Assembly (NCBI RefSeq): GCF_000004825.1
Contig: NW_008805089.1
Coordinates: 1,054,001 to 1,118,000 of the forward strand
DNA: 64,000 nucleotides
Direction: 5' to 3'
Source of the DNA: Heterostelium album PN500
Taxonomy: Eukaryota > Evosea > Eumycetozoa > Acytosteliales > Acytosteliaceae
Part shown: piece by piece, positions 6,625-51,349 of the stretch
Position numbering within the stretch: position 1 is the stretch's first letter
Layout of the letters: the number at the start of each line of letters is the position of its first letter
Made by a program: the position numbers and the translations under genes
Notes under the pieces: generated by a model
Told to the model about the DNA's origin: nothing
Seen by the model: only the letters and a program-made list of their open reading frames with translations
Database searches by the model: none

Positions 6625-8413
6625 TTATATTAAGTTCTCCCACCATCTTTTTGGTTGTGATTCTGGTTGTTGTGGAACTTGATTATAGAATTGGTTGTTT
6701 TGTTGGAATGGTGGCTGTTGTTGTTGTTGGTCTTGTTGGTACATCAAGTTTTGTTGTTGTTGTGGTTGCTGCTGTTGTTGTTGTTGTTGAATTGGTTGTT
6801 GGTATTGTTGTGGTTGCTGTTGTTGAACATTCATTGGCTTTTGTTGTTGTTGTTGAACTTGTTGTGGTTGTTGAGCTTGTTGTGGTTGTTGAGCTTGTTG
6901 TTGCTGGAATTGTTGGTATGGGTAAGTGTATTTTGGTTTTTGTTGTTCCATGAGATGTTGTTGTTGTTGTTGTTGTTGCTTTGGATCGAATGTGTTTTGT
7001 TGTTGTTTGATAGCTCCGCTGAAAACACTTGAACCTTGCTGTGGCTGCTTGTTTCCAGCCATTACATTAGTTTGTTGTTGATGGAATTGTTGTTGTTGAA
7101 TTTGTTGTGGATTCATTTGTTGAAACTGTGGTGGTTGTTGTTGATGTTGAACTTGTGGTTGTTGTTGTTGCTGTTGTTGTTGAATTTGTTGTTGTTGAAC
7201 TTGTGCATTGTATTGTTGTTCCAACTTTTCATGTAATAATTCATTGTTGATTCCAGTGACAATCAAAGTGACTCTAACTTTTCCACTCAACTCTGGATCC
7301 AAAGTGGAACCAAAGATGATGTTGGCAGATGGGTCGACACGACTGCTTACTAAACTGACGATCTGGTCGACCTCGGCAAGTGTAACATCACTACCTGAAA
7401 TATTAAGTAGCACACCTTTGGCACCGGCAATATCGATATTCTCCAACAATGGGTTGTTCAAAGCTTGTTCGGCGGCAATAAGATCACGTCCTTGACCCTC
7501 AGCCTCACCGGTTCCCATCAGTGTTTTTCCACTGTCACACATAATCGATCGGACGTCTGCGAAATCCAAATTGATCAAACCTGGCTTCACTAGAATATCA
7601 GAGATACCCTTGACACCGTTGTAAAGAACATCGTCGACCATCGAAAATGCCTGATTGATGGACATTGGCGATCCGGCACTAGCCTGGACCTCCATCAATC
7701 GCTGATTTGGCAATACGATTAAACTGTCGACTGCCGACTCCAAAGAGGCGAGTCCGGCCTCTGCCAACTTCATACGATGACGTCCCTCAAAGTGGAATGG
7801 CTTGGTGACGATTCCGACGGTCAAGATTCCACGAGCTTTGGCGGCGGCGGCGACAACTGCAGCGGCACCAGTACCGGTTCCACCACCCATACCGGCAGTG
7901 ACAAAGAGCATTTGAGTGTCACCGATCTGCTCCATCAGCTCATCGAGTGATTCCTCTGCGGCACGACGTCCAACATCAGGAACGGCACCTGCACCCAATC
8001 CACGAGTCAATACCTTTCCTAGTTGCACAACCTTCTCACTATCACTGATGGCCAGTGCTTGAGCATCGGTATTGGCAACAACGAAATCGACACCATACAA
8101 TTGTTTCTTGATCATATTATTGACAGAGTTACATCCACCACCACCAACACCACAAACAGTGATTCTTGGAATCGATATCCAATTTCTATCATCGACAACA
8201 GTTATCTTTGAATAGTTTCTAACTGACAACCTGAAAGATAATTAAAAAATAGATAATTAATTATTGTACACAAATAATATCATGATTTATATTTTTGTAT
8301 AATTATAAATACCTTGGAATTACTTGAGAAGGTGTTGAGTATCCATTGAATAGTGATGTTTTGTTAGAGACCTTAAGTAGGTCTCTGCAGATTTTTAATT
8401 GTAAATAATTCAT
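6625..8413 (-). CDS. fsz: Mitochondrial FtsZ division protein with polyglutamine linker
   Basis: Tubulin-like GTPase that polymerises inside mitochondria and takes part in their division; dictyostelids retain this alphaproteobacterial protein. Exon 1 is 8413-8313 and exon 2 is 8230-6625, giving about 568 residues. Exon 1 supplies the ATG and a basic, hydroxylated N-terminus like a mitochondrial presequence; the open frame in exon 2 alone has no ATG at its start. The GTPase core carries VCGVGGGGCNSVNN, the tubulin signature GGGTGTGAAA (near residue 146) and the T7 loop NLDFADV. After about residue 379 comes a roughly 170-residue Gln-rich linker, then the tail PKRWWENLI. D. discoideum has two paralogues (FszA, FszB); which one this matches is not decided. 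It lies upstream of and in tandem with the RhoGEF gene. Confidence 0.95.
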
Positions 8414-25967: not shown

Positions 25968-27023
25968 TCAAATCTTTCTATTTTGTTTTGCTTTCTTTGG
26001 ACTTTGTAAATTACTCTTTCTTACTCGGACACGTTTGTTACCGAACCAATTCTCGACTTGAGTCTTGGAGAGATTACAGATGGTACCGAGCAATACCTTT
26101 TCATCCTCATTGGGAAAAGGCGAAACTTTGTTCTGTTCGAACCATTGGTTAATCAAGTTATGATGATCTTTTGGGAGCACTCTTCTGCCTCTTGCAGGTC
26201 CTTTTCCACGGCTGCCACGTGTCTTGGCGGTTTTCTCTTTGACCGGTCTCGATTCACCGCTCATCTTTCTCGCCTCCAAAAGGTAGTCGCAGGCATTCGA
26301 GCGTTGGTGAGACATCAATACCATGAAGATTCGCTCCAACTCGGTTACCTTGGCATCGTGCTCACCGACTGATAGCGGACGTAGTAACATGACGAGTGAC
26401 TCGATCATTGAGAACTGTTCGAGCGATGTCTTTAACTGGTTATTGAGGTTGGTAATCTCCTGGGTGTAGAGTGGTGTAATTCGCAGCAAGTTCTTTGACA
26501 CCAAGGGATTCGATCGATTGATCTGCTCAGCGTTGATATATGGGTCTAGATCGTAAGATAGATGGCCACCCTTTGGAAGATATCGTTTGGTTGGAATCGG
26601 TTGGATTTGCTTGATTACCTCTGATATGAAACCATAGAGCTGAGCAAAATATAGTGATTCTTGGAGCTCTTTGATTTCTTTTACGAGCGATGGGCAGTAT
26701 TTAGATACATCATTGTCTTCATATTTTAGATCATCTTGATCATCTTCATCCATAAAGCTCTGAAGGTTGTCAGGTACTGGTGAGACATCACCAGAAATGG
26801 TGGATAACTCAGGTGTAGACACATAACTACTAGTTTGAGAACTTGAATCTAGATCAACGGAATTATTTTGGTAGTAATTTTGAAAATTAACAAAACCATT
26901 TTTTTCTTGTATATAGTTAAATGGCTGTTGTTGTTGAAGATTTTCAAAGTTTGAAAACAAGTGTTGTTGTTGATTTTGTTGATGGAGATAAAATTGATCT
27001 GTTGGGAAATTGTTGAAAATCAT
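25968..27023 (-). CDS. TALE homeodomain transcription factor, PBX-like
   Basis: Intronless, 351 residues. The N-terminus is Gln/Asn-rich (HQQNQQQHLFSN), then an acidic, Ser-rich stretch. A predicted helical region (about 120-250: LVKEIKELQESLYFAQLYGF, LNNQLKTSLEQFSMIESLVM) could be a PBC-like dimerisation domain. After a basic linker (SRGKGPARGRRVLP) comes the homeodomain: DHHNLINQWFEQNK, the extra TALE loop around SPFPNEDEK, and recognition helix KTQVENWFGNKRVRVRK. WFGNKR is the PBX signature (PBX: VSNWFGNKRIRYK). It should bind DNA in the nucleus. Dictyostelids have several TALE genes; which one this is remains open. Confidence 0.9.
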   Translation of the reverse strand: MIFNNFPTDQFYLHQQNQQQHLFSNFENLQQQQPFNYIQEKNGFVNFQNYYQNNSVDLDSSSQTSSYVSTPELSTISGDVSPVPDNLQSFMDEDDQDDLKYEDNDVSKYCPSLVKEIKELQESLYFAQLYGFISEVIKQIQPIPTKRYLPKGGHLSYDLDPYINAEQINRSNPLVSKNLLRITPLYTQEITNLNNQLKTSLEQFSMIESLVMLLRPLSVGEHDAKVTELERIFMVLMSHQRSNACDYLLEARKMSGESRPVKEKTAKTRGSRGKGPARGRRVLPKDHHNLINQWFEQNKVSPFPNEDEKVLLGTICNLSKTQVENWFGNKRVRVRKSNLQSPKKAKQNRKI

Positions 27024-28241
27024 CTTATCTATTTGTATTTAATTAGTTAAATTATGATAACAATATCAATAATAAGTTGTTATTTAAATATTAATAAATA
27101 ATTTAAAAATAGGAAATTTATTTGTAAAAAATAAATAAAATAATTACAAATAATTAAAAATAATCTATTGGGTATGGCAATCTTTGATGGAAGGGTTGTT
27201 GATCATAGTTAATCTCGAAATTGGAAGAACCCATTTTATAATGAACCGATTTCATTTACCAGTACATGTACAAATGAGATTTTGAAAGGTCTCAGTTTTC
27301 CAACTTTACTAAACCCTATTTTCGAAAGAAATTATCTTTCTCTTGTTTGATATCACCCACAAGTTTGATGGTGAGTAGAATAAAAAATAAAATAAAAAAT
27401 GATTAAACAGACAAATGGCAATGAAAGGTGGTTGTTCTTTTCTGAGTTGTTTTGTCATTGTCGAGAAATAAAGATTGTTTGTTAACCCCAAAACTAAAAA
27501 AACAATCTTTATTCCTTCTTTGGTATTGTTTTTGTTTTTTTCTATCAGTTCATTGGAAATATCGACTGAGGAACTTTCCATATTATCATAGATCTAAACT
27601 TATCAAAACAATTTTTTTAATTTTTTTAAATAATGATATTGGTTTTTTGTTATCCAAGTTTGGGTTTTTGATTTATTGTTGTGATTGCATCCATTGATTT
27701 TAGATGCAAAAAATAAAATCAAGTTGTATTTATAAATAAAAACACCATTGATGAATCAATCGATAACCCAAAATCCATCAAAAAAAAAAGGAGTTACATT
27801 TGTTAATTTTTCTATTACAATTGTTTTTTTTTCATTTTCATAAATTATTTTTATCTTTTTTTTTTTTTTTTTAAAAAAAGATAAAACAAATATTGCTTAG
27901 TATTTGTTTAAATAAATAAAATAAAGTTTATTTGTTTGAGTTGAATATTAAACTTCATATTATTACTATTAGTGGTTTGTGGATAAGTTATATTGAGATT
28001 CACAATAACACACTTTACCACTGATCCATATTAACTTAATAAAATTTATTGAAAAATACATGAAAATATAAAAAACAAAAAATGTATATTTTTTTTTAAT
28101 CTATTAGTATAAATTTTTAATATAAATATTGTAAAAGTATCATATTTAATTGTTTTATCATTATATTATTAAATAGTAGTAAAATATTATTTATTTGTAA
28201 TAATTTTAAAATAACTACCAAGCATATATATTGATGTCATC
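27024..28241. promoter_or_regulatory. 1.2-kb divergent region, homeobox gene / unknown gene
   Basis: An AT-rich region between divergent genes. A 190-bp block near 27160-27350 is less AT-rich and holds a short open frame on the plus strand without a start codon. A perfect hairpin lies at 27467-27513. Several T- and A-runs lie between 27780 and 28110. No firm gene is seen. Confidence 0.4.
27467..27513. other. 14-bp perfect inverted repeat with 19-nt loop
   Basis: AATAAAGATTGTTT (27467-27480) pairs exactly with AAACAATCTTTATT (27500-27513). The loop is GTTAACCCCAAAACTAAAA. It lies in the divergent intergenic region, about 440 bp upstream of the homeobox start. It could be a small RNA hairpin, a terminator-like structure or the footprint of a small mobile element; none of these is shown. 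Confidence 0.6.
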
Positions 28242-35909: not shown

Positions 35910-38900
35910 CTAATAATCTCTTCCATGTAATGAACATGAGCTTAAGAATTTCTCTTCAAGATAATGTGATATCCAGCAACACCAGAGTTCTTGTAGGTTG
36001 ATGTCACTGCGATACAATGGCTTACCACGGTCCAAGTGTGAATCTGGTTCTCCGTATTGATCGAGATAGGCATCGTGCATCAGACTCTCACGATAGTCAC
36101 GGATGATCGCCACCGTTGGGCTCTTGGTCTCGAGGAATACACCGATCTTGTAGATACCACAAACGTTCATGTGCTTATTGGCTTCAGTAGATGAATTGAT
36201 GACACAGCAAGTGCTGTCTATGCAAATGAGATGTCCACACAGCAGACAGATTGCACTCTTGGTAGGGATGGTCTTGCAGGTTATACAGGGAATGTTAAGA
36301 TACTTGATAAAGATATCTTTGTAGTTGTTTGGCAGATCGATAAAGGTCGGTCTCTTTGGCTCCATGATGATGAACGGTGAGTTCTTCTCGAGACGACTCA
36401 CCCATATTGGTAGCAATGGGTTCTTTCTCTGTTTGGTGACGATTGCCTCCAACGAGCTGATTCCAAGCATTGAGAAAAGCTTGTCTTTCATAATGATGTC
36501 TTCACGTTGAAGTGTAGGAATCTTGTTGAACAGTATATGTTGAGAAAGACAGAGACATCTGAGCAGTGGTGAAATGTGCACCAGTAGATCTCTGTAAAAG
36601 ATGCTCTGTTCCTCTGGTGATTGAGCGGCAAGCTGGTCTAGATACTCGAGAATCAGTTGAATCAATGATACTTTCTTCTTTTTCTCGAGTGTCGAATAGA
36701 TCTTTGTGATAATGAACTGAACTACAAATACATCGAGTGAGAAACTGGTGATCACATCGATATCAAAGTTGCTGGGTGAATCCAATACAGAGAGGAACAG
36801 AATGAATGAACCGAATGGATCGATGGAAAGAATCGACTCTGACATACCCTTGAATAGATCGATGGTTGACTCTCTGTACTTGTGCTCTTTATGCTGATGA
36901 ATATAATCTCTGAATACTTTATACAATGATTTAATAGTTAAAATATCGCGTGCAAAAATATCTGCTCCTATACAAAATTGTGGTGTTTGTTGTTGTTGTT
37001 GACTGTTATTATTATTGTTATTATTATTATAGTTATTATTGTTGTTACTTGGTTGTTGTATTTCTCTTGTTGCAATCTCTAGAAACTCTATATTTCTAGC
37101 AGTTAATTGACAGAGGAAATAAGGTGAAATTGTATCTACATTGCCACCTTTGAAAGCGACTCTATTCAACTCGTGGAAAAAGAAAAGATTTTCTTCAGAC
37201 TTTTTGGCTGGTGATGCAGCAGAACTCTTTCCTTTGGGAACTAAAGATGAAAACCAATTTGACAATTGATTTTTTGTTACATCATCGAATGAATCCATCT
37301 TTTCTTTACCAAAACTTGTTGATAAACTATTGTTATTATTACTGTCTGTATTGATATTATTATTTTCTAAATCACTATCACTACTAACAGTCGCTTGTTG
37401 TTGATCCTTTCCACTATTTGAAAGTATCTCAATTTGATCTTTACCGCCACTGTTTACCAAGTTACTACTTCCATTGCTTGCGTTACTACTACTACTTCCA
37501 TTACTCATACTTAAATGTGAAAATGGTGAAGTTCTTTCTTTGTTTGTTGTTGTTGTTGTTGTTGAACTTGTGTTGTTTGTTGTTTGTTGTTGTTGATTAT
37601 TATTATTATTATTACTATTGTTATCTACAATTGGTATGATAATGTTTGAAACTCTTCTGCACATTGGACATAAGAATTCACCACTTAATGGTCGAATGAT
37701 ATGATCACCTTCGAAGCCGTCGAGTTGTGATGCCTTGTGCATCAATGCATCGGTATAGTGCTTGAAGCAATCGTGGTGAATGTGATGTCCACAGCATCTC
37801 ATGTGTAGAGACGATGTATAGTTGAGAAGATCGAGTTGTGATCGTTGCTGTGGGAACGATATGTACTTGAGGAAATCCTTGCAGTGCTTCTTCAGTCGCA
37901 GTGGTAGGTTGGCAAGTACTGCAATCTTTGAAAAGGTGATCAGCGTTGAATACTGATACATTGCAATGACAGAGAGTGGATCCTTCTTTGAGTAGTTTCC
38001 CTTCAAACAAAGAACACAGGTTGCCACTTGGCAATCGTTGCTCTCCAACTCATCGTCAGAGTCGAGCGTCATCAAAAACTTGTTTTGTTGCTGTGTGAAC
38101 TTTGCCATGATCTCTGCTTGACGTTGTTTGGCACCCTTTAGTTTCTCATCGGATGACTTTACTTGCTCCTCAAGAGTCTGTTTGTAATTTGGATACTTTT
38201 CAAACAAATACTCCTGGATGTCTGGATGATAACCAAAGAGTGAATCGATTATCTTGGTGATGAGATCACGCTTATCGACAAACAAGTTGTTCTGATGTGT
38301 TCGCTTTAACATCTCAATGAGTATATCGAATGTCGATGTAACAGTGTCTTTAAATAGATATTTCTGTAGCATACACAATACAGAATGTTTATGGGAAACA
38401 AAGGTGAGTTCTGGATGGTTAAGTTTATCCATTGGTAAATGTGAAGAACAATCTCCTTTATCGTTGTTGTTGTTGTTGTCGTTATTATCGTTTCCATACC
38501 ATGGTTTCATTACATTTGTTGACAATGCCAAATAGTAAAGACATTCATTGACTGCAAACATTACCTCTGGGATATCATCGGGTGTTGTATTTCCAGATTC
38601 GAATATACGTTTAGTAAATGAGTGTAGCAGTGAAAGTGCCATGTAGTGAGCGAAATCGGAATGAACAATCTCTTCTACCGGTTGATTCCATTCGATTAGT
38701 GGTGCCAATGGTGGTGGCAACGGTAAGGAATCAGGATTCTTGAGTTTACGATTCTTTTTAAAGTCAAAGTAGGCAACGATTGAATCCTCTACGTTCTGTG
38801 GCGTATAGAGTGGATAGTATGGATTGAATTGTTTCCAAAACTCTGGTTTCAACTTAAAGATTGCCGGTTGGTCACCAGTGTGTGTTTGCTGTTCCATTGT

Positions 38901-41414
38901 CGCCACCTCTTGCAATATACTTTCAAAGAGTTGCTCCTTGTCCAGATAGGTCATTGTAGATTCAATCTTGCTATGAGTCTTTGCCTGGCCATACAACAGG
39001 TGAACCAACGCATTCTTGACATACTCTCTATTTGGCACCATCGATGCTCTCTCCTGATAGATCTGAATGATAAACTTGAAGAAATGAAAGTATTTATGAT
39101 TGTTATGATCGTTTTGATTCTTAACGACAACCGGTAAGAATGCTCCAAATTCTTTTGAAGCAAAAATTAAGAATTCATTTACATCTAATACTGAAGCAAC
39201 TATTGTTGATAATAATATTAATTAGTGTTTATATTATTGTTTGGAAAATTACTTAATTATTATTGTTTGTTAACTTACTTGTTTGAATGATGGATATATC
39301 ATTTTCTAAAAAGAATAAACAATAAAGGAATGCTTTTTTTCTAACCATGTCATGATTGTTTCTAACCCAGTAGCTGTTGTTGACTTGGTGGACGAATACT
39401 TGACAAAGAACGAATGGCATCAATATACGGCTGAGATTGACTCGCTTTGGGAATAGTGATTTCAAATCGGTTGAATCTCCAAAGAGTGACCTTGTTTTCT
39501 GTATCAATTGTACGTAGAATCTGTACAGTGGGAGTATCAGTGAGACTGAACTGGTTCCATCGAACAGGTCGGTATTTGACACGGAGACACCGAGATAGCT
39601 GCCACTGAATTCTGTGGTTGCGTCGACCAGGAAATTAGTGTAATAGTCGATCAAGTCCAACATATCTTTGAGTTTGATATCGGCGGGAATAGATTCAATC
39701 ATTTCCTTGGAGATATCGCGAAATTCAGAGTCTAGCTGGAACGAATAGATCCATTCGTCGCGGTCGTACTCTACGTGTGTGTTCATCTGGCGAGTGAATC
39801 GCTCGAAGCAATGAGCACGTCGCAGCACATAGAGATACTTGTTGAGAAGAGAACGCTTCTCAAAGAGAATATAGTGACAGAGTGTCGGTGCTTGAATCAA
39901 CGTCTTGATATCACTGATGATCGCGGTGTGATGTCTGTCCAACGATCCACCCCTGCTAAGAACCATAAGCAGAGCATCTAGAGTGGTATCCAAAAACGAT
40001 GGATTGTACTCCTTGCTAAACTGCGTCGATATCGAACTGATAGAGAATACCTGTGGTGAATATCTGTAGACGGCATCGATTGTCGAGATCTTGGCGAGCT
40101 GCGAGTAGACGTGTGTATAGGACTTTGAGAATCCAACTTTAAACGTGTGGTCGCACAGCAGAAACAAGAAGAGATAGACAATCTTTGAGTAGAGTTCCGC
40201 GCCCTCCAACAAGATGAGTCGCACGAGGGGTGGTTGGAATTCTACTGGGAGCGAATAGTGCACGGCGTCGTCGGCTCGACTGAATTTCAGTGGTTCGTTG
40301 TGGGTGATTGGCAGCGTCGATGGATTCAGTGTCTGGTAACACAGCTCCTCGCACAACACATGTGAAATGGCGGCACCGATATGCGCCACTCCGTCAATCC
40401 AAGTGAGCAGCTCCAGCGAATACTGATTGGCGACGGATTCGCTTACGTGTGAGAATTCCGTTTGGAATACAGTGTGGCTGTTCAACTCCAAAATAATGGA
40501 AAGTATACAACGAATCGAGAGATGTGTAGATATCAGGAGATCGGATTTCATATTGAGAGTAGGATCCTCTTCGGGACCGGTATGCGCATGATTCGAACAG
40601 AATCCCGACTCTTTCCAACTGTCCATCGTTCCACAATCGCAACTTCCACCATAGTATGCAAAACTCGTTGAATAGTCATGACCTTCTTTCTCATGTGGTC
40701 CAGCTGCAAAACAATCATAACCTGCAAATTATAATTGTTTTGAAAACACAGGTGTTAATCATACAGTACAGTTGATCAAACATTTTAAATCTATTGTATT
40801 GATATTTAATTGATTAAAAGTAACTTACAAATTGAACTACTTGGTGAAAGTGCACATGTTTTACAACGATAGAATAATCCGTTTGGTCCCCATACTTTGT
40901 GACATGAGCGTGGCTTTGAAATGGAGGAGAGATACTGCTTGATATCTTTAGAGTCGACAGAGAGATAAAAGACAATGTTTACTTTTTCTATGAACTGTCG
41001 CATTGAGATGTGGTTGTGTGCCAACTGTGTCTTGAGAAACAAGAGAAACTCAAGGAAGATAGGTGGTCCTTTCTCAACTAAAACATTGAGAAGTTCATTG
41101 TTTTTCTTTTTCAACAGTGATTTATAATCGATTACATTGTTTATAACTTGTAATTGTTGTGAATTCGAATTGTTATTATTGTTGCTATTACTAATATTAT
41201 TATAATTACTGCTACTGTTATTCCGACTACCACTTCCACTTCCACTACTACCACTCGAGTTACTCATACTACTGCTACTATTATTCTTGTTATCAGAAGA
41301 ATCTGGCATATCAGTATCAGAGTTACTACTACCACCACCACCATTGAAATTCGATTTCCTCTCACCACCGTTCCCATCGTTATGTTGATTAGATTTCGAA
41401 GAATTGATACCCAT
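35910..41414 (-). CDS. UBR3-like E3 ubiquitin ligase (UBR box, RING-H2, UBLC)
   Basis: Exons 41414-40829, 40721-39279 and 39199-35910 encode about 1,772 residues. The N-terminus is Ser/Asn/Gly-rich. The UBR box (about 170-240) spans intron 1: CHKVWGPNGLFYRCKTCALS, SSSICYDCFAAGPHEKEGHD, YYGGSCDCGTMDSWKESGFC and the final SNH. It resembles UBR3 (CRTCGISP, GGACDCGD, RESGFC) more than UBR1. A RING-H2 follows near residues 1073-1200: CVLC, then RCCGHHIHHDCFKHY and FLCPMC. The C-terminal cap domain is present (CLLCGHLICIDSTCC, then YLDQYGEPDSHLDRGKPLY). UBR1-type proteins read N-degrons; UBR3 lacks classical N-degron binding, so substrates are unknown. The length fits the family. Poly-Asn/Gln/Thr tracts occur near the RING. 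Confidence 0.93.
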
Positions 41415-42470: not shown

Positions 42471-43255
42471 CTATTGTCCACCACCACAACAACTTGATTT
42501 TGAAGATACTGTGTCCAATACTACTAAATCCTCACTGTGAATAATAAATATAAAATGTTAGTGTTTTTTTTTTTTTTTTTTACTTGATTATTTGTATCTT
42601 ATAATTAGATTGATTGATTATTTACCGCTGAGAATCACTAGGTATTAAATTTTGTAAAGAAATTCTTGAAACGGTTGCGAATGCCTCTTCGATGTTGGTG
42701 GCATCCTTTGCAGAGGTGTCGAAATAGAAAATGTTTCCACCGATCTCCTTGATAAAGTTGGTTGCAGCACGCTCTGTAACCTTTCTGTTCTCTGGTTCGT
42801 CGACCTTGTTGCCCAGCACGACGAATGGGAATTGATCGGGGTTCTGAACACCGGTCTTGTCTATAAAGTCTTCACGCCACATCTTTAGTTCGTGAAGTGT
42901 TTTCTCGTTGGTGACGTCAAACACCAGAATGCAGCAGTCTGCACCACGATAATATGAAATCTCGAGACTACGGAATCTCTCTTGACCCGATGTATCCCAA
43001 AGCTGCAGTGTCACCATCTTGTCATTGACCATAACATCTTTATTAACAAAATCCACTCCAATCGTTGGTTTCAGTGGTACAAATCTTTGATCTACATATC
43101 TTTTTAATATACTTGTTTTTCCAACACTATAGTAATAACAATTGATTGATTAATATCAATCTTTCTATCTATCTATATGTCTATTAACTTAACACATTAT
43201 TTGTTTACCTTTTCTCACCAATTATAACTATTTTCACTACTTTTCTTGGTGCCAT
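42471..43255 (-). CDS. Rab7-like small GTPase
   Basis: Exons 43255-43209, 43126-42626 and 42534-42471 encode 203 residues. Rab7 GTPases direct late endosome, lysosome and phagosome traffic. G1 is GEKSVGKTS, G3 is WDTSGQERF, G4 is LGNKVD and G5 is TSAKD. The segment RSLEISYYRGADCCILVFDV and the FPFVVLGNKVD phrase are Rab7-type. The C-terminus SSKSSCCGGGQ provides the dicysteine for geranylgeranylation, followed by four extra residues. Differences from the standard Rab7A (GDSGVGKTS, DTAGQERF) suggest a Rab7B-type paralogue. The GTP-binding glutamine is retained, so it should hydrolyse GTP. Confidence 0.93.
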
Positions 43256-47474: not shown

Positions 47475-48344
47475 ATGATTAAAAATCAATATATTTTTCT
47501 TTTTTTTATTGGACTGACTCTTCAAGTCAGTTTGTGTCAAGATCTACCATCGTACTTTACATTTAAACCAAGTGGAATATTCTGTCCTAAAAATTCATCC
47601 AATTGCACGAAATTCTTGTTGAGTGAGGTCAACTCAAAGACCAATGTAAATATAGAGGTTAAAAACCTATATTTCGAGAGTAGTGTCAATCAGAGCATTG
47701 TTCTAAGCGCTGGTGCAAACAATGTCGTAATCAAAGGTTTCTTCATGACCGTAATGGGACCGATTATAAACTTCCGTGTACAACAAGCCTATCGTTTAGT
47801 TCCCACTCCCAATGCACCACCTGCAGAAGGAAAATTCTATCAAATCGAAAACTCTGGAATCATGTGTATTCCCGAACGTCAGTGTCCAGGAAAGCGAGCT
47901 GTCCTCATCAATGGAAAGAATACATCGGTTCTAATCAATAATTTCGATGACAGTGCTTACAATAGCATCTTCTTGTTTGATATGTCATGGTTGGAGAGCA
48001 AGATCGTTGCTGAAAAACCGTACACCGCTATTGTATATGGTACTGCCAATAAAGGAAACTTGGTTATCCACTCTGCCTATGTCAACATCAATGATCCTCC
48101 AACCAAATGTCCAGAACTACCATTAGCAAAATGTTTAGCAGGCCATGTTACTACTTACATCAGAGGTTCAGATAGATGCTACTCCTTTGATGAATGTACC
48201 AAGAGTGGACTCTGCTCTTTGGCCATTCCAAAATGTTCAGACCATTTCAGATTGGTATCATACCCCTCGAAATCCAGTCACGGTTGTCCAAAATATTTGT
48301 GTGAACCTGATTTCTTACCACCTACATCATTTCATAATGAATAA
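47475..48344 (+). CDS. Secreted cysteine-rich dictyostelid protein (possibly DUF6748)
   Basis: Intronless, 289 residues. The signal peptide is MIKNQYIFLFFIGLTLQVSL, cleaved near CQ. Two related units follow: YFTFKPSGIFCPKNSSNCTK with FLLSEVNSKTNVNI, and YRLVPTPNAPPAEGKFYQIE then IMCIPERQCPGKRAVLINGK. Each has a Cys pair followed by a V/INxK stretch, a pattern I associate with secreted dictyostelid DUF6748 proteins; this is from memory and tentative. The last about 75 residues hold nine cysteines in CPELPLAKCLAGH, RCYSFDECTKSGLCSL, PKCSDHF and GCPKYLCEP, like a small disulphide-rich module. N-glycosylation sites (NSSN, NQS, NTS) are present. The function is unknown; extracellular matrix or wall is plausible. 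Confidence 0.8.
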   Translation: MIKNQYIFLFFIGLTLQVSLCQDLPSYFTFKPSGIFCPKNSSNCTKFLLSEVNSKTNVNIEVKNLYFESSVNQSIVLSAGANNVVIKGFFMTVMGPIINFRVQQAYRLVPTPNAPPAEGKFYQIENSGIMCIPERQCPGKRAVLINGKNTSVLINNFDDSAYNSIFLFDMSWLESKIVAEKPYTAIVYGTANKGNLVIHSAYVNINDPPTKCPELPLAKCLAGHVTTYIRGSDRCYSFDECTKSGLCSLAIPKCSDHFRLVSYPSKSSHGCPKYLCEPDFLPPTSFHNE

Positions 48345-48629
48345 ATCTAAAAAACTTTAGTTTGGTTTATTTTTTTGAATAAAAATACGTACAGAATGAG
48401 TTAGAGAAAATTTGCTTTTGCCCATCTTATTAAATTAGCTTTACAAGTTTTAGTTCATATTAAAAAAAATACAGTATGTTAATATGTTAGATATTAATCA
48501 ATTATACAAATACTATTTTATTTTTTATGATAAAATCTATATATATATATAGACCAAACAAACAATTGTTTGGGTGCATGAGTCTTTATTTTATTTTGAT
48601 ATATATGTTTGGAAAAACCAGATTAATGT

Positions 48630-51349
48630 CTACATAATTATACAATTTTTAGATTTCTTTTTCTTTTTGTTGTTATTGTTATTGTTGCTGTTGTTATTTA
48701 CAATGTTGTTTTCATTTAATTCATTGTTATTGTTAAGATTATTGTTATTCAATGTCGATGTTGTTGTAGTTGTTGTTGTGGTTGTTGTTGATTGTTCGGT
48801 GTTACTGTTGTTATTGTTTTCTGAGACTATACTATTTTCGATTGATGATGGCGAGGTAGATACAGTTGGTGAGAGGTTATAACTTTCAATACAAGGCGGT
48901 GTTGTGTTTTCATTATCTTGTTGAATAATAATGTTGGTGCGCGCATTATTTGTAATGGTTGTATTTTGATTTGATTCATTATTGATACTACTATTGTTGT
49001 TGTTGTTGCTGCTACTGTTATTATTTGTTGTATTTACATTTGTTGATTCATTGGCGTTATTATCATTGTCATCATCTTCTTCTTCATCATCATCTACACC
49101 GTCTTCATCGTCATCGTCATCACCATCTTCATCTACATTCTCATCATCTTCATCATCATCATCGTCGTCTTCGTCATAGTTGTTATAATCATCTTCATCC
49201 ATCTCGAAATAATCTATATCCATACCACGCTCTGCCATTTTTATCTTCTCAACTGAACGTTTGTGCTCCTCGGGGTTGGTGTCGGGATGTGGAATGACAA
49301 TGTGTGCTGGCTTGGATGCGTTTGCCTTCTCGACGAGCTTGGCACAACGCTTCTTGTAGGCATCACGGTTCTGTCTCCATTCGACACTGGCGTCGACATT
49401 GGCTGGCGAAGAGCAATTTGGATCACTGAGAATCGACATGACACTGAGAATGATTGTCGAAACTGTTTGTGTTGGTAGCCAACGCTCTTGAGGTAGCTCA
49501 CCGGACAGTGCATCCTCGCCAGGTGGATGTAAAATACTGATACAGACTTTGCCCTCTTTTTGATAGACATTTGGATGCCAAAACTCTGAAAGGAATCTCA
49601 GTGACGGTGGACTCATTGGATAGTCCTTTGGAAACGTCAATAACAATTGGAAAACTCCACCTTCATAAAATGTATCTTTTGGTCCTTCTAAATATACCTT
49701 TTTTTATTTTATTATTAATATTACAATTTTTTTTTTTATTAAAAGTACAAAAATGATTATATATATTATATATTGTTGTATTTATAAATTTGTTATAGGT
49801 GATTGTGAACTAATATCACACATTGCCATATCACTATTATTTCCACTATAATGTTGTACGATCGAGAGTGGAGTCGATGGTGGTGATGGTGGAATAGAAT
49901 TGGAACATAAATTCGATGGTGAATAGTAGTAGAGCATTGGTGAAGATGTATATGATGATTGTTGATTCATTTTATTATTTATTTTTAGTTGTATTGGAAA
50001 ATATATAGTTTTAAAGTAATATAAATTGGTATTTCTAATTGGTCAAGTTTAATTTAATTTTTGATTTAATGATTATAAAATTGAATTGGAATTGATTTAA
50101 ATAGTGGATTGATTATTCCTAAACCTCACATCGTGATATTTTCTCACAGTTGGCAAATGTAAATATTAATATTAATTACCAACAAAGTAATATTACTCAA
50201 TGAGTAGGAAATGATATTTTGGAAACTGACCACAAACACAGACATAATAAAGAAAAAAACAGACTTTTAAAATATTAAAAAACAACAATGGATAATATTG
50301 TGTTTATTTGTCCACACAATTTAATTATTTATATTGTCGTTTCTTTCATGAAACGAATAAAAAAAAAAGTAGAAGAAGGTTTGGAAATATATTAAACAAA
50401 TGTTACTCTCACTCTATTGTTTATTTATTTTATTTCTATCTTTTTCAATTGAAAGTGTGGTAGATAGAGATAAGGTAGTTTTGTTTATAGATTTTGATTG
50501 CGTGGTTGTTTGTGTGTATGTATGTGTGTGATAATGAAATTAAAAATAGAAATAAAAAGATAGGATTCTCATATAATAAACACCTGAAAGTAAGAGGTAT
50601 AATGATGATGTTGATGAGAGTGACTGGAACTATTTAAAAATCAAAAAACCAAAAAACCAATCCACATTTTATGTTTCTATCTATTTAATGATTTGTTTTA
50701 ACTACCAAATATAGAATGAAATAACAATAATAATGTAAAATATATACTATATGTTGATCTACTGTCCATCTATGTATTGGATATTTAGGATGATTGATTG
50801 ATTGCCATCGATGATTGAAATAAAACACATTGTTATATTTTATAATTATTAAATTCTAAAATCAAAATAATCTGAAATTATTTCATATTTCACTAATTAT
50901 CAAACACATCAAATAACTATAATAAATATAGAGTAGTCACCAAACTGTTGTGTTGTCCACAATTATAAATCAACAATAAAAGATAAAGGTTGGATTTAAA
51001 TTTTAAAATTATATTATATAATATATTTACCTTCCATTCATAGAGTGATGATTCATTAACCAATTCAACTGTGAATCCCTCCACTGGATCTTTCATTAAA
51101 CCTAATTAAAATAATTATAATAATTCATTATTATTAGTATAATGATCAATAATGTTTGGTTATTTATTTATTGAGTTCAGCAGTTTGATAATCCTTTGAC
51201 CAAAATAAAAACAAATCGATTGTGTCTATTTTATGCTTTTTACCAAATTTGGTAAAAATACAAAAAAGGTAAAACCAATTGATTTACTATTTTAATTACT
51301 TGATTATGTACTTACCATTTAATTGATTCGCTAACAATTTTGTAGTCAT
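48630..51349 (-). CDS. CDC34/UBE2R-type ubiquitin-conjugating enzyme with K-Ras-like CaaX tail
   Basis: Exons 51349-51316, 51101-51031 and 49697-48630 encode 390 residues. E2 of this class works with SCF ligases to build K48-linked chains. Exons 1-2 give MTTKLLANQLNGLMKDPVEG and FTVELVNESSLYEWK; exon 3 continues VYLEGPKDTFYEGGVFQLLL. The catalytic region has WHPNVYQKEGKVCISILHPP with the active Cys, and the acidic loop GEDALSGELPQERW specific to CDC34 and UBE2G2-type E2s. Beyond the core come a long Asp/Glu tract, as in Cdc34, and Asn/Thr-rich sequence. The last residues are KKKKKSKNCIIM, a polybasic region plus CaaX motif almost like K-Ras4B. Intron 2 is 1,333 bp and contains a small same-strand ORF. 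The function of the tail is inference. Confidence 0.92.
49782..49970 (-). CDS. Small Ser/Pro-rich ORF nested in the E2 intron
   Basis: A 62-codon frame starting with an ATG in a good context (AAAATG) lies entirely within intron 2 of the E2 gene, on the same strand. It begins MNQQSSYTSSPMLYYYSPSN and contains SIPPSPPSTPLSIVQ and NNSDMAMCDISSQSP. The composition is not simple AT-drift; several SP/TP motifs could be proline-directed kinase sites. About 1 kb of AT-rich sequence upstream within the intron could serve as promoter. It may be a nested gene, or part of an alternative first exon for the E2. No family is recognised. Confidence 0.45.
   Translation of the reverse strand: MNQQSSYTSSPMLYYYSPSNLCSNSIPPSPPSTPLSIVQHYSGNNSDMAMCDISSQSPITNL

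What the first reader, a model, noticed from the sequence alone, without database searches (positions are those of the whole stretch)
48630..48671. CDC34-type E2 ends in a K-Ras4B-like polybasic CaaX tail
The last codons of the E2 gene read KKKKKSKNCIIM before the TAG stop at 48632-48630. K-Ras4B ends in a lysine run followed by CVIM. CIIM fits the farnesyltransferase CaaX pattern, and the lysine run is the usual second membrane signal. Yeast and animal CDC34/UBE2R proteins, as I know them, have acidic tails and no CaaX. If real, it predicts a membrane-anchored ubiquitin-conjugating enzyme delivering K48 chains at a membrane. The frame is continuous from the catalytic domain, so the tail is not an exon-joining artefact.
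Basis: partly seen in the sequence, partly recalled or inferred. Interest (0 to 1): 0.78.

Follow-up and report, generated by a model that had tools for sequence, protein, structure and literature searches.

The report
Ubiquitin-conjugating enzyme with predicted lipid anchor
A social-amoeba-like genome encodes a Cdc34-type ubiquitin-conjugating enzyme whose last twelve residues read as a Ras-style lysine run plus farnesylation signal, predicting a ubiquitin-chain builder pinned to a membrane, but conservation and lipidation are untested.

Summary
The minus-strand gene ends KKKKKSKNCIIM-TAG, in frame with the catalytic domain in one long exon. Two inferred upstream exons complete a 390-aa protein. 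It has an E2 domain (Pfam), the S73/S97/loop motif and an acidic tail (34 of 44 residues D/E). A nine-row tree puts it beside Cdc34/UBE2R at modest support, 84/88, though UBE2G1 is the best solved-structure match. Human UBE2R1, UBE2R2 and yeast Cdc34 end without CaaX.

Composition does not explain the tail: in Markov sequence, CaaX ends occur in about 0.12% of frames, but CaaX plus a basic run in 0 of 206,214 and 2 of 194,053. Against: the last 42 bases are as AT-rich as 3' flank.

Best reading: a farnesylated, membrane-tethered Cdc34-type E2 (0.6). Conservation, lipidation and location could not be tested. Prenylated relatives in the pathway exist (plant UEV1A, MUB, yeast Miy1); ten paper searches listed no prenylated Cdc34 that I recognised. 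New variant of a known kind.

The parts
51316..51349 (-). E2 exon 1: start codon, residues 1-11 and the first base of codon 12 (MTTKLLANQLN)
   Evidence: inferred splice at GTAAGT; spliced frame open and colinear with UBE2G1/UBE2R
51031..51101 (-). E2 exon 2: rest of codon 12 to residue 35 (GLMKDPVEGFTVELVNESSLYEWK)
   Evidence: AATTAG acceptor, GTAAAT donor; aligned to the N-terminal part of UBE2G1/UBE2R
48630..49697 (-). E2 exon 3: residues 36-390 and the TAG stop; rest of the E2 domain and the whole C-terminal tail
   Evidence: single open frame; Pfam UQ_con 5.8e-44 over residues 7-154
49542..49544 (-). codon of the catalytic Cys87 (GKVCISILH)
   Evidence: Cys87 invariant with human and yeast Cdc34 in a four-row alignment; position counted from the exon 3 start and read
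49062..49193 (-). acidic tract, residues 204-247: 34 of 44 residues D/E, no K/R
   Evidence: residue counts; coordinates counted from the exon 3 start
48669..49061 (-). Asn/Thr/Ser-rich linker, residues 248-378: no lysine, one arginine (R288)
   Evidence: coordinates counted from the exon 3 start
48645..48668 (-). polybasic run KKKKKSKN, residues 379-386
48630..48644 (-). CaaX box CIIM, residues 387-390, and the TAG stop
48585..48595 (-). two AATAAA poly(A)-signal-like hexamers (starting 48595 and 48590), 35-40 bases after the stop
   Evidence: pattern match only

Best explanation
This is a Cdc34/UBE2R-type ubiquitin-conjugating enzyme, complete in its catalytic motifs, with a built-in membrane anchor. 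Shown from sequence: the E2 domain, the S73/S97/loop motif, an acidic tail like that of Cdc34, an Asn/Thr-rich linker of 131 residues without lysine, then a lysine run and a CxxM CaaX box. Inferred: farnesyltransferase lipidates Cys387, Rce1-type cleavage removes IIM and Icmt methylates the new end, as for other CaaX proteins; farnesyl plus six lysines then hold the tail at a negatively charged membrane face. The low-complexity stretch of about 175 residues (acidic tract plus linker) would let the E2 domain and its acidic arm swing out to cullin-RING ligases and build K48 chains on substrates near that membrane. Which membrane is open: plasma membrane as for K-Ras4B (recalled), or nuclear envelope as for lamin NE81, if the lysine run also acts as an NLS.
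For: Tail sequence, frame and gene model; CaaX plus basic run in 0 of 206,214 and 2 of 194,053 simulated frames; all six lysines of the last 145 residues lie at 379-385, next to the CaaX cysteine; E2 domain and Cdc34 features. A CxxM box works in Dictyostelium: lamin NE81 (box CLIM) needs its CaaX box for inner nuclear membrane association (PMC6406624, passages). The design has precedents in the same pathway: rice UEV1A, whose membrane association depends on its C-terminal tail and probably its prenylation (PMC5513143, passages), and yeast Miy1 (CVVM) and Miy3 (CVIM), whose location depends on prenylation, Miy1 also on farnesyltransferase Ram1 (PMC11847538, passages; its authors note that the nuclear-envelope signal of Miy1 may come from overexpression).
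Against: No orthologue, transcript or protein data. The last 42 bases have the AT content of 3' flank. Human and yeast Cdc34 lack the feature, so without orthologues it could be a recent extension. The best-scoring solved structure is UBE2G1, not UBE2R, and the tree support for the Cdc34 side is 84/88 only. Donor-like hexamers lie in the tail. A yeast Cdc34 cut at residue 244 still supports growth (PMC3080790, passage), so far C-terminal parts of Cdc34 can be dispensable.
Confidence: 0.6

Rival explanations
1. The lysine run is a nuclear localisation signal (or an autoubiquitination site) and CIIM is not used; the enzyme is a soluble, mainly nuclear Cdc34.
For: KKKKKSK fits a monopartite basic NLS (recalled rule); yeast Cdc34 also has two lysines next to its end (SKKI), and a passage in PMC3080790 mentions replacement of all lysines by arginines that prevents Cdc34 autoubiquitination.
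Against: It leaves the coincidence of a CaaX box exactly at the end unexplained: strict CaaX ends occur in about 0.12% of simulated frames. A basic NLS and a CaaX box are also compatible, as in lamin NE81.
Confidence: 0.2
2. The tail is a chance extension: a lost stop codon in AT-rich DNA gave a short K/I/N-rich run that happens to look like CaaX, without function.
For: The last 42 bases are 83.3% AT, like the 3' flank at 79.3%; K, N, I and M are the residues that AT-rich codons give. By a loose CaaX pattern 22 of 1885 frames of the window qualify.
Against: Simulated sequence of the same local composition gives strict CaaX plus a basic run in 2 of 194,053 frames.
Confidence: 0.14
3. The mature mRNA or the true sequence does not carry this tail: a single-base error in the A-run, or splicing inside exon 3.
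For: One-base deletion or insertion in the A-run gives ends NNKRKRNLKIV or NNKKEKEI. Donor-like hexamers lie at 49037 and 48701 (GTAAAT, the hexamer of the inferred intron 2 donor) and at 48643 (GTATAA, overlapping the Cys codon), with acceptor-like matches starting at 48593, 48546, 48522, 48435 and 48352.
Against: No sequence evidence that either happens; such short patterns are common in AT-rich DNA, and the frame runs unbroken to a stop with AATAAA 35 bases on.
Confidence: 0.06

Closest known systems
Cdc34/UBE2R (yeast Cdc34, human UBE2R1 and UBE2R2)
   Same: E2 domain 41.2% (yeast) and 55.7% (both human) identical, S73/S97/acidic loop, acidic C-terminal tail
   Different: they end EES, EES and KKI without CaaX; they lack the long Asn/Thr linker
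UBE2G1 / S. pombe Ubc15
   Same: UBE2G1 is the highest single score in solved structures (199.7 bits); 56.7% and 49.7% identity
   Different: R or M in place of the Ser73 equivalent, GYE instead of SGE in the loop; they lack an acidic tail (recalled, not tested)
Plant UEV1A/B (CaaX-bearing E2 variants)
   Same: E2-fold protein with a C-terminal extension and CaaX; in rice UEV1A the tail, and probably prenylation, sets location and membrane association
   Different: E2 variants that partner Ubc13 in K63 chains, without their own catalytic cysteine (recalled)
MUB / UBL3
   Same: prenylation used to bring E2s to a membrane
   Different: a ubiquitin-fold adaptor that binds UBE2D-type E2s and inhibits their charging; not an E2
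Yeast Miy1/Miy3 (MINDY deubiquitinases)
   Same: ubiquitin enzymes with CxxM boxes and prenylation-dependent location; Miy1 acts on K48 chains
   Different: remove chains instead of building them
K-Ras4B and Dictyostelium lamin NE81
   Same: lysine run plus CVIM (K-Ras4B, recalled); NLS plus CLIM in NE81
   Different: a GTPase and a lamin; the resemblance is confined to the targeting signal, and in NE81 the NLS is not next to the CaaX box

Membership tests
Cdc34/UBE2R E2 | E2 catalytic domain with HPN and catalytic Cys | tested here: met
   UQ_con 5.8e-44; H76 P77 N78 and C87 invariant with human UBE2R1/R2 and yeast Cdc34
Cdc34/UBE2R E2 | S73/S97/acidic loop motif (hallmark by PMC3080790; shared with Ubc7) | tested here: met
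   S64 and S89 invariant, a loop of the same length as in UBE2R1; hallmark from passages
Cdc34/UBE2R E2 | groups with Cdc34/UBE2R and not with UBE2G1 or UBE2G2 in a tree | tested here: inconclusive
   9-row tree, Cdc34 side 84/88, not starred; yeast Cdc34 is a long branch; UBE2G1 is the best single match and the nearest row by path
Cdc34/UBE2R E2 | acidic C-terminal tail | tested here: met
   residues 204-247 hold 34 D/E of 44 and no K/R
Cdc34/UBE2R E2 | works with SCF/cullin-RING ligases and makes K48 chains | not testable with these tools
   biochemistry needed
UBE2G1 (considered) | non-Ser at the Ser73 position and GYE-type loop, as in UBE2G1 and Ubc15 | tested here: not met
   window has MSPP and SGELP; only two UBE2G1-type rows were compared, so the rule is weak
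CaaX (farnesylated) proteins | C-terminal C-aliphatic-aliphatic-X with X = M for farnesyltransferase | tested here: met
   CIIM at the end; the X = M rule is recalled
CaaX (farnesylated) proteins | the cysteine is prenylated in the cell | not testable with these tools
   needs mass spectrometry or inhibitor
CaaX (farnesylated) proteins | CaaX conserved in orthologues | not tested
   no dictyostelid or other amoebozoan orthologue turned up in what could be searched
K-Ras4B-type polybasic farnesyl anchor | lysine run next to the CaaX cysteine as second signal | tested here: met
   6 K in residues 379-385, C at 387; sequence only, function not tested

The most novel reading that the evidence does not exclude
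A Cdc34-type E2 carries its own lamin-like address, a basic NLS plus a CxxM farnesyl box, and works tethered at the nuclear envelope by a long flexible arm, so that SCF-driven K48 chain building is confined to a membrane surface; the acidic tract (34 acidic residues) and the lysine run (6 K) could bind each other when the tail is off the membrane, making membrane binding an on-switch for the cullin-binding arm.
Probability: 0.15. Interest if true: 0.75.

Novelty: new variant of a known kind. Interest (0 to 1): 0.55.

Why it matters
Cdc34 is known as an E2 that feeds SCF ligases, and the human and yeast proteins carry no CaaX. A version with its own lipid anchor would put K48 chain building at a chosen membrane and would be the building counterpart of the prenylated K48-directed deubiquitinase Miy1. 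It would also show that the location of an E2 can be set by a genetically simple C-terminal signal, testable with one point mutation (C387S).

Tried and rejected
Conservation could not be tested: no own genome is held; a single-sequence scan and an alignment scan of viral contigs confirmed no relative (0 of 6 and 0 of 14 pattern matches); the one scan of genome contigs confirmed 7 of 34 stretches, all in records with archaeal titles, 27-34% identical, of no use for the tail.

Structure prediction of exon 3 alone (355 aa, one sequence, lacking residues 1-35) gave mean pLDDT 41.0, pTM 0.26, and was not used.

The bacterial promoter/terminator scan of the 3' region has no bearing on a eukaryotic gene.

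Rejected: the tail as an exon-joining artefact (the frame is open in the DNA); UBE2G2/Ubc7 membership (those three rows form a separate starred clade, 100/100). A first attempt at the splice junction was one base off and broke the frame; corrected.

I saw the listings; one search listed 30 of 34 papers, 15 of 16, 10 of 11, 10 of 12, the other six all that they found (1, 3, 0, 22, 1 and 12). Passages were read in PMC3080790, PMC11354881, PMC9108976, PMC6406624, PMC11816917, PMC4996978, PMC5513143, PMC11847538 and PMC9917286. No whole paper was read.

Full report
What is there. On the minus strand the gene ends in AAA AAG AAA AAG AAA TCT AAA AAT TGT ATA ATT ATG TAG, that is KKKKKSKNCIIM and stop, with TAG at 48632-48630. 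The open frame from 49703 to the stop has 357 codons. Two further exons upstream complete the protein: 51349-51316 and 51101-51031, joined to 49697-48630 over introns of 214 and 1333 bp with GT..AG ends; the product has 390 residues. The gene model is mine, made by eye and by agreement with known E2s; no transcript was seen.

What the protein is. Pfam gives UQ_con at 5.8e-44 over residues 7-154. With residues 1-207 as query against solved structures the best scores, by molecule, are UBE2G1 199.7 bits, UBE2R2 189.6, UBE2R1 189, a 19-kDa E2 (1pzv) 186.9, E2 15 (5knl; Ubc15) 184.1, UBE2G2 157.6, 2ucz (yeast Ubc7) 149.6 and yeast Cdc34 140 (60 of 253 matches were shown). In a nine-row tree of E2 domains the window protein falls on the Cdc34/UBE2R side with support 84/88, which is not strong; yeast Cdc34 is a long branch, the nearest row by path is UBE2G1, and identity is 56.7% to UBE2G1 and 55.7% to UBE2R1 and UBE2R2. 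Three features favour Cdc34: a serine at the yeast Ser73 position, which the UBE2G1 and Ubc15 rows lack; the SGELP loop; and the acidic tail, 34 D/E of 44 residues at 204-247. The S73/S97/loop motif is called a hallmark of the Cdc34 family, shared with Ubc7, in PMC3080790 (passages). I therefore call it Cdc34-type, with UBE2G1 kinship not excluded.

The tail. Residues 248-378 are Asn/Thr/Ser-rich and hold no lysine and one arginine; the six lysines of the last 145 residues are all at 379-385, followed by N386 and C387-I-I-M390. In six frames of the window 2 of 1885 stop-ended frames of at least 20 aa end in strict CaaX (this one, and a 44-aa frame ending DCLLL), one of these two has a basic run, and 22 of 1885 fit a looser CaaX pattern, for which basic runs were not counted. 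Order-3 Markov sequence, trained on the whole window or on the 716 bases 48345-49060 (which include the tail itself), gives strict CaaX in 252 of 206,214 and 229 of 194,053 frames, and strict CaaX with at least 5 K/R in the ten preceding residues in 0 and 2; with a broader farnesyl pattern the counts are 295 and 235, and with the basic run 1 and 1. Shuffling the last 145 residues gives strict CaaX in 38 of 400,000. These are odds for one pre-chosen gene; the finding was picked by a reader of a whole window, which weakens them by the number of genes read.

Results against the reading. The last 42 bases are 83.3% AT, as in the 3' flank (79.3%) and introns (79.4 and 76.7%), and not as in the Asn/Thr tail (69.0%). 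This fits a late extension into former 3' flank, although AT-rich codons also follow from K, N, I and M themselves. A single inserted or lost base in the A-run would abolish the CaaX. Donor-like hexamers in exon 3 after the E2 domain (GTAAAT at 49037 and 48701, the hexamer of the inferred intron 2 donor; GTATAA at 48643, on the Cys codon) and five acceptor-like matches downstream leave alternative splicing possible in principle. Of ten other open-frame ends looked at, eight use TAA, one TGA and one (PRT6-like) TAG, so the TAG of the E2 gene is an uncommon stop here; some of those ten are ends of open frames and not of proven genes.

Comparison with Cdc34 proteins. Full chains in the structure library show human UBE2R1 and UBE2R2 ending in GTEES and GNEES and yeast Cdc34 ending in RVSKKI, all with acidic tails and no CaaX.

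How it most likely works. Farnesylation of Cys387, cleavage and methylation are inferred from the CxxM rule, which I recall. Dictyostelium does use such a box: lamin NE81, with the box CLIM, needs it for inner nuclear membrane association (PMC6406624, passages; PMC11816917, passages). The lysine run would give the second, electrostatic signal, or a nuclear import signal, or both. The E2 domain and acidic arm would then work at the end of a long, probably disordered leash. That the C-terminus of yeast Cdc34 holds a domain needed for SCF binding is in PMC3080790 (passages), which also reports that Cdc34 cut at residue 244 supports yeast growth. Nothing here shows which membrane, which E3, or that the enzyme is lipidated at all.

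Prior art. Prenylation of ubiquitin-pathway proteins is known: MUB proteins carry CaaX and tether UBE2D-type E2s to the plasma membrane while inhibiting their charging (PMC4996978, passages); rice UEV1A, an E2 variant, has a CaaX tail on which its location and membrane association depend, probably by prenylation, although its tail-less form was not fully lost from membranes (PMC5513143, passages), and potato and Arabidopsis have such tails too (PMC9917286, passages); yeast Miy1 and Miy3 end CVVM and CVIM and depend on prenylation for their location (PMC11847538, passages). Ten searches of the open library listed no paper that I recognised, by title and abstract start, as describing a prenylated Cdc34 or another prenylated catalytic E2; subscription papers and preprints are mostly not in that library, four of the ten listings were cut short, and most listed papers were not opened.

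Conservation. The decisive comparison with other dictyostelids could not be made: no whole genome is held, the viral scans confirmed nothing, and the one prokaryote scan gave seven archaeal E2s. A fold of exon 3 alone was of low confidence (mean pLDDT 41.0) and is not used.

Verdict. A real C-terminal signature, unlikely to be chance, on a Cdc34-type E2; function likely but unproven; a new variant of a known kind. Interest 0.55, rising if orthologues keep the tail.

Noticed in passing
49782-49970 (-): A 62-aa open frame (MNQQSSYTSS...) with the start context AATAAAATG lies inside the long (1333 bp) inferred second intron of the E2 gene, same strand; no Pfam match. Possible nested small gene.
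   Followed up: partly
35910-40728 (-): PRT6/UBR1-type N-recognin E3 ligase in at least two open frames (PRT6_C 2.5e-40, UBR box 6.7e-08), about 8 kb from the E2 stop.
   Followed up: no
47475-48344 (+): Convergent open frame for a Cys-rich protein with a signal-peptide-like start (by eye) and a sub-threshold DUF6748 match (7.4e-06, 26.2 bits, cut-off 27); ends 285 bases from the E2 stop.
   Followed up: no
42622-43149 (-): Rab/Ras-type GTPase (Ras 1.1e-45); no CaaX or CC end in this open frame, so a prenylated end would lie in a further exon, which was not traced.
   Followed up: no
6625-8241 (-): FtsZ-like frame with a long Gln-rich C-terminus, by eye, not searched; probably mitochondrial FtsZ (recalled that dictyostelids keep it).
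   Followed up: no
25968-27038 (-): Homeobox protein of KN type (Homeobox_KN 8.5e-12), ends in TGA.
   Followed up: no
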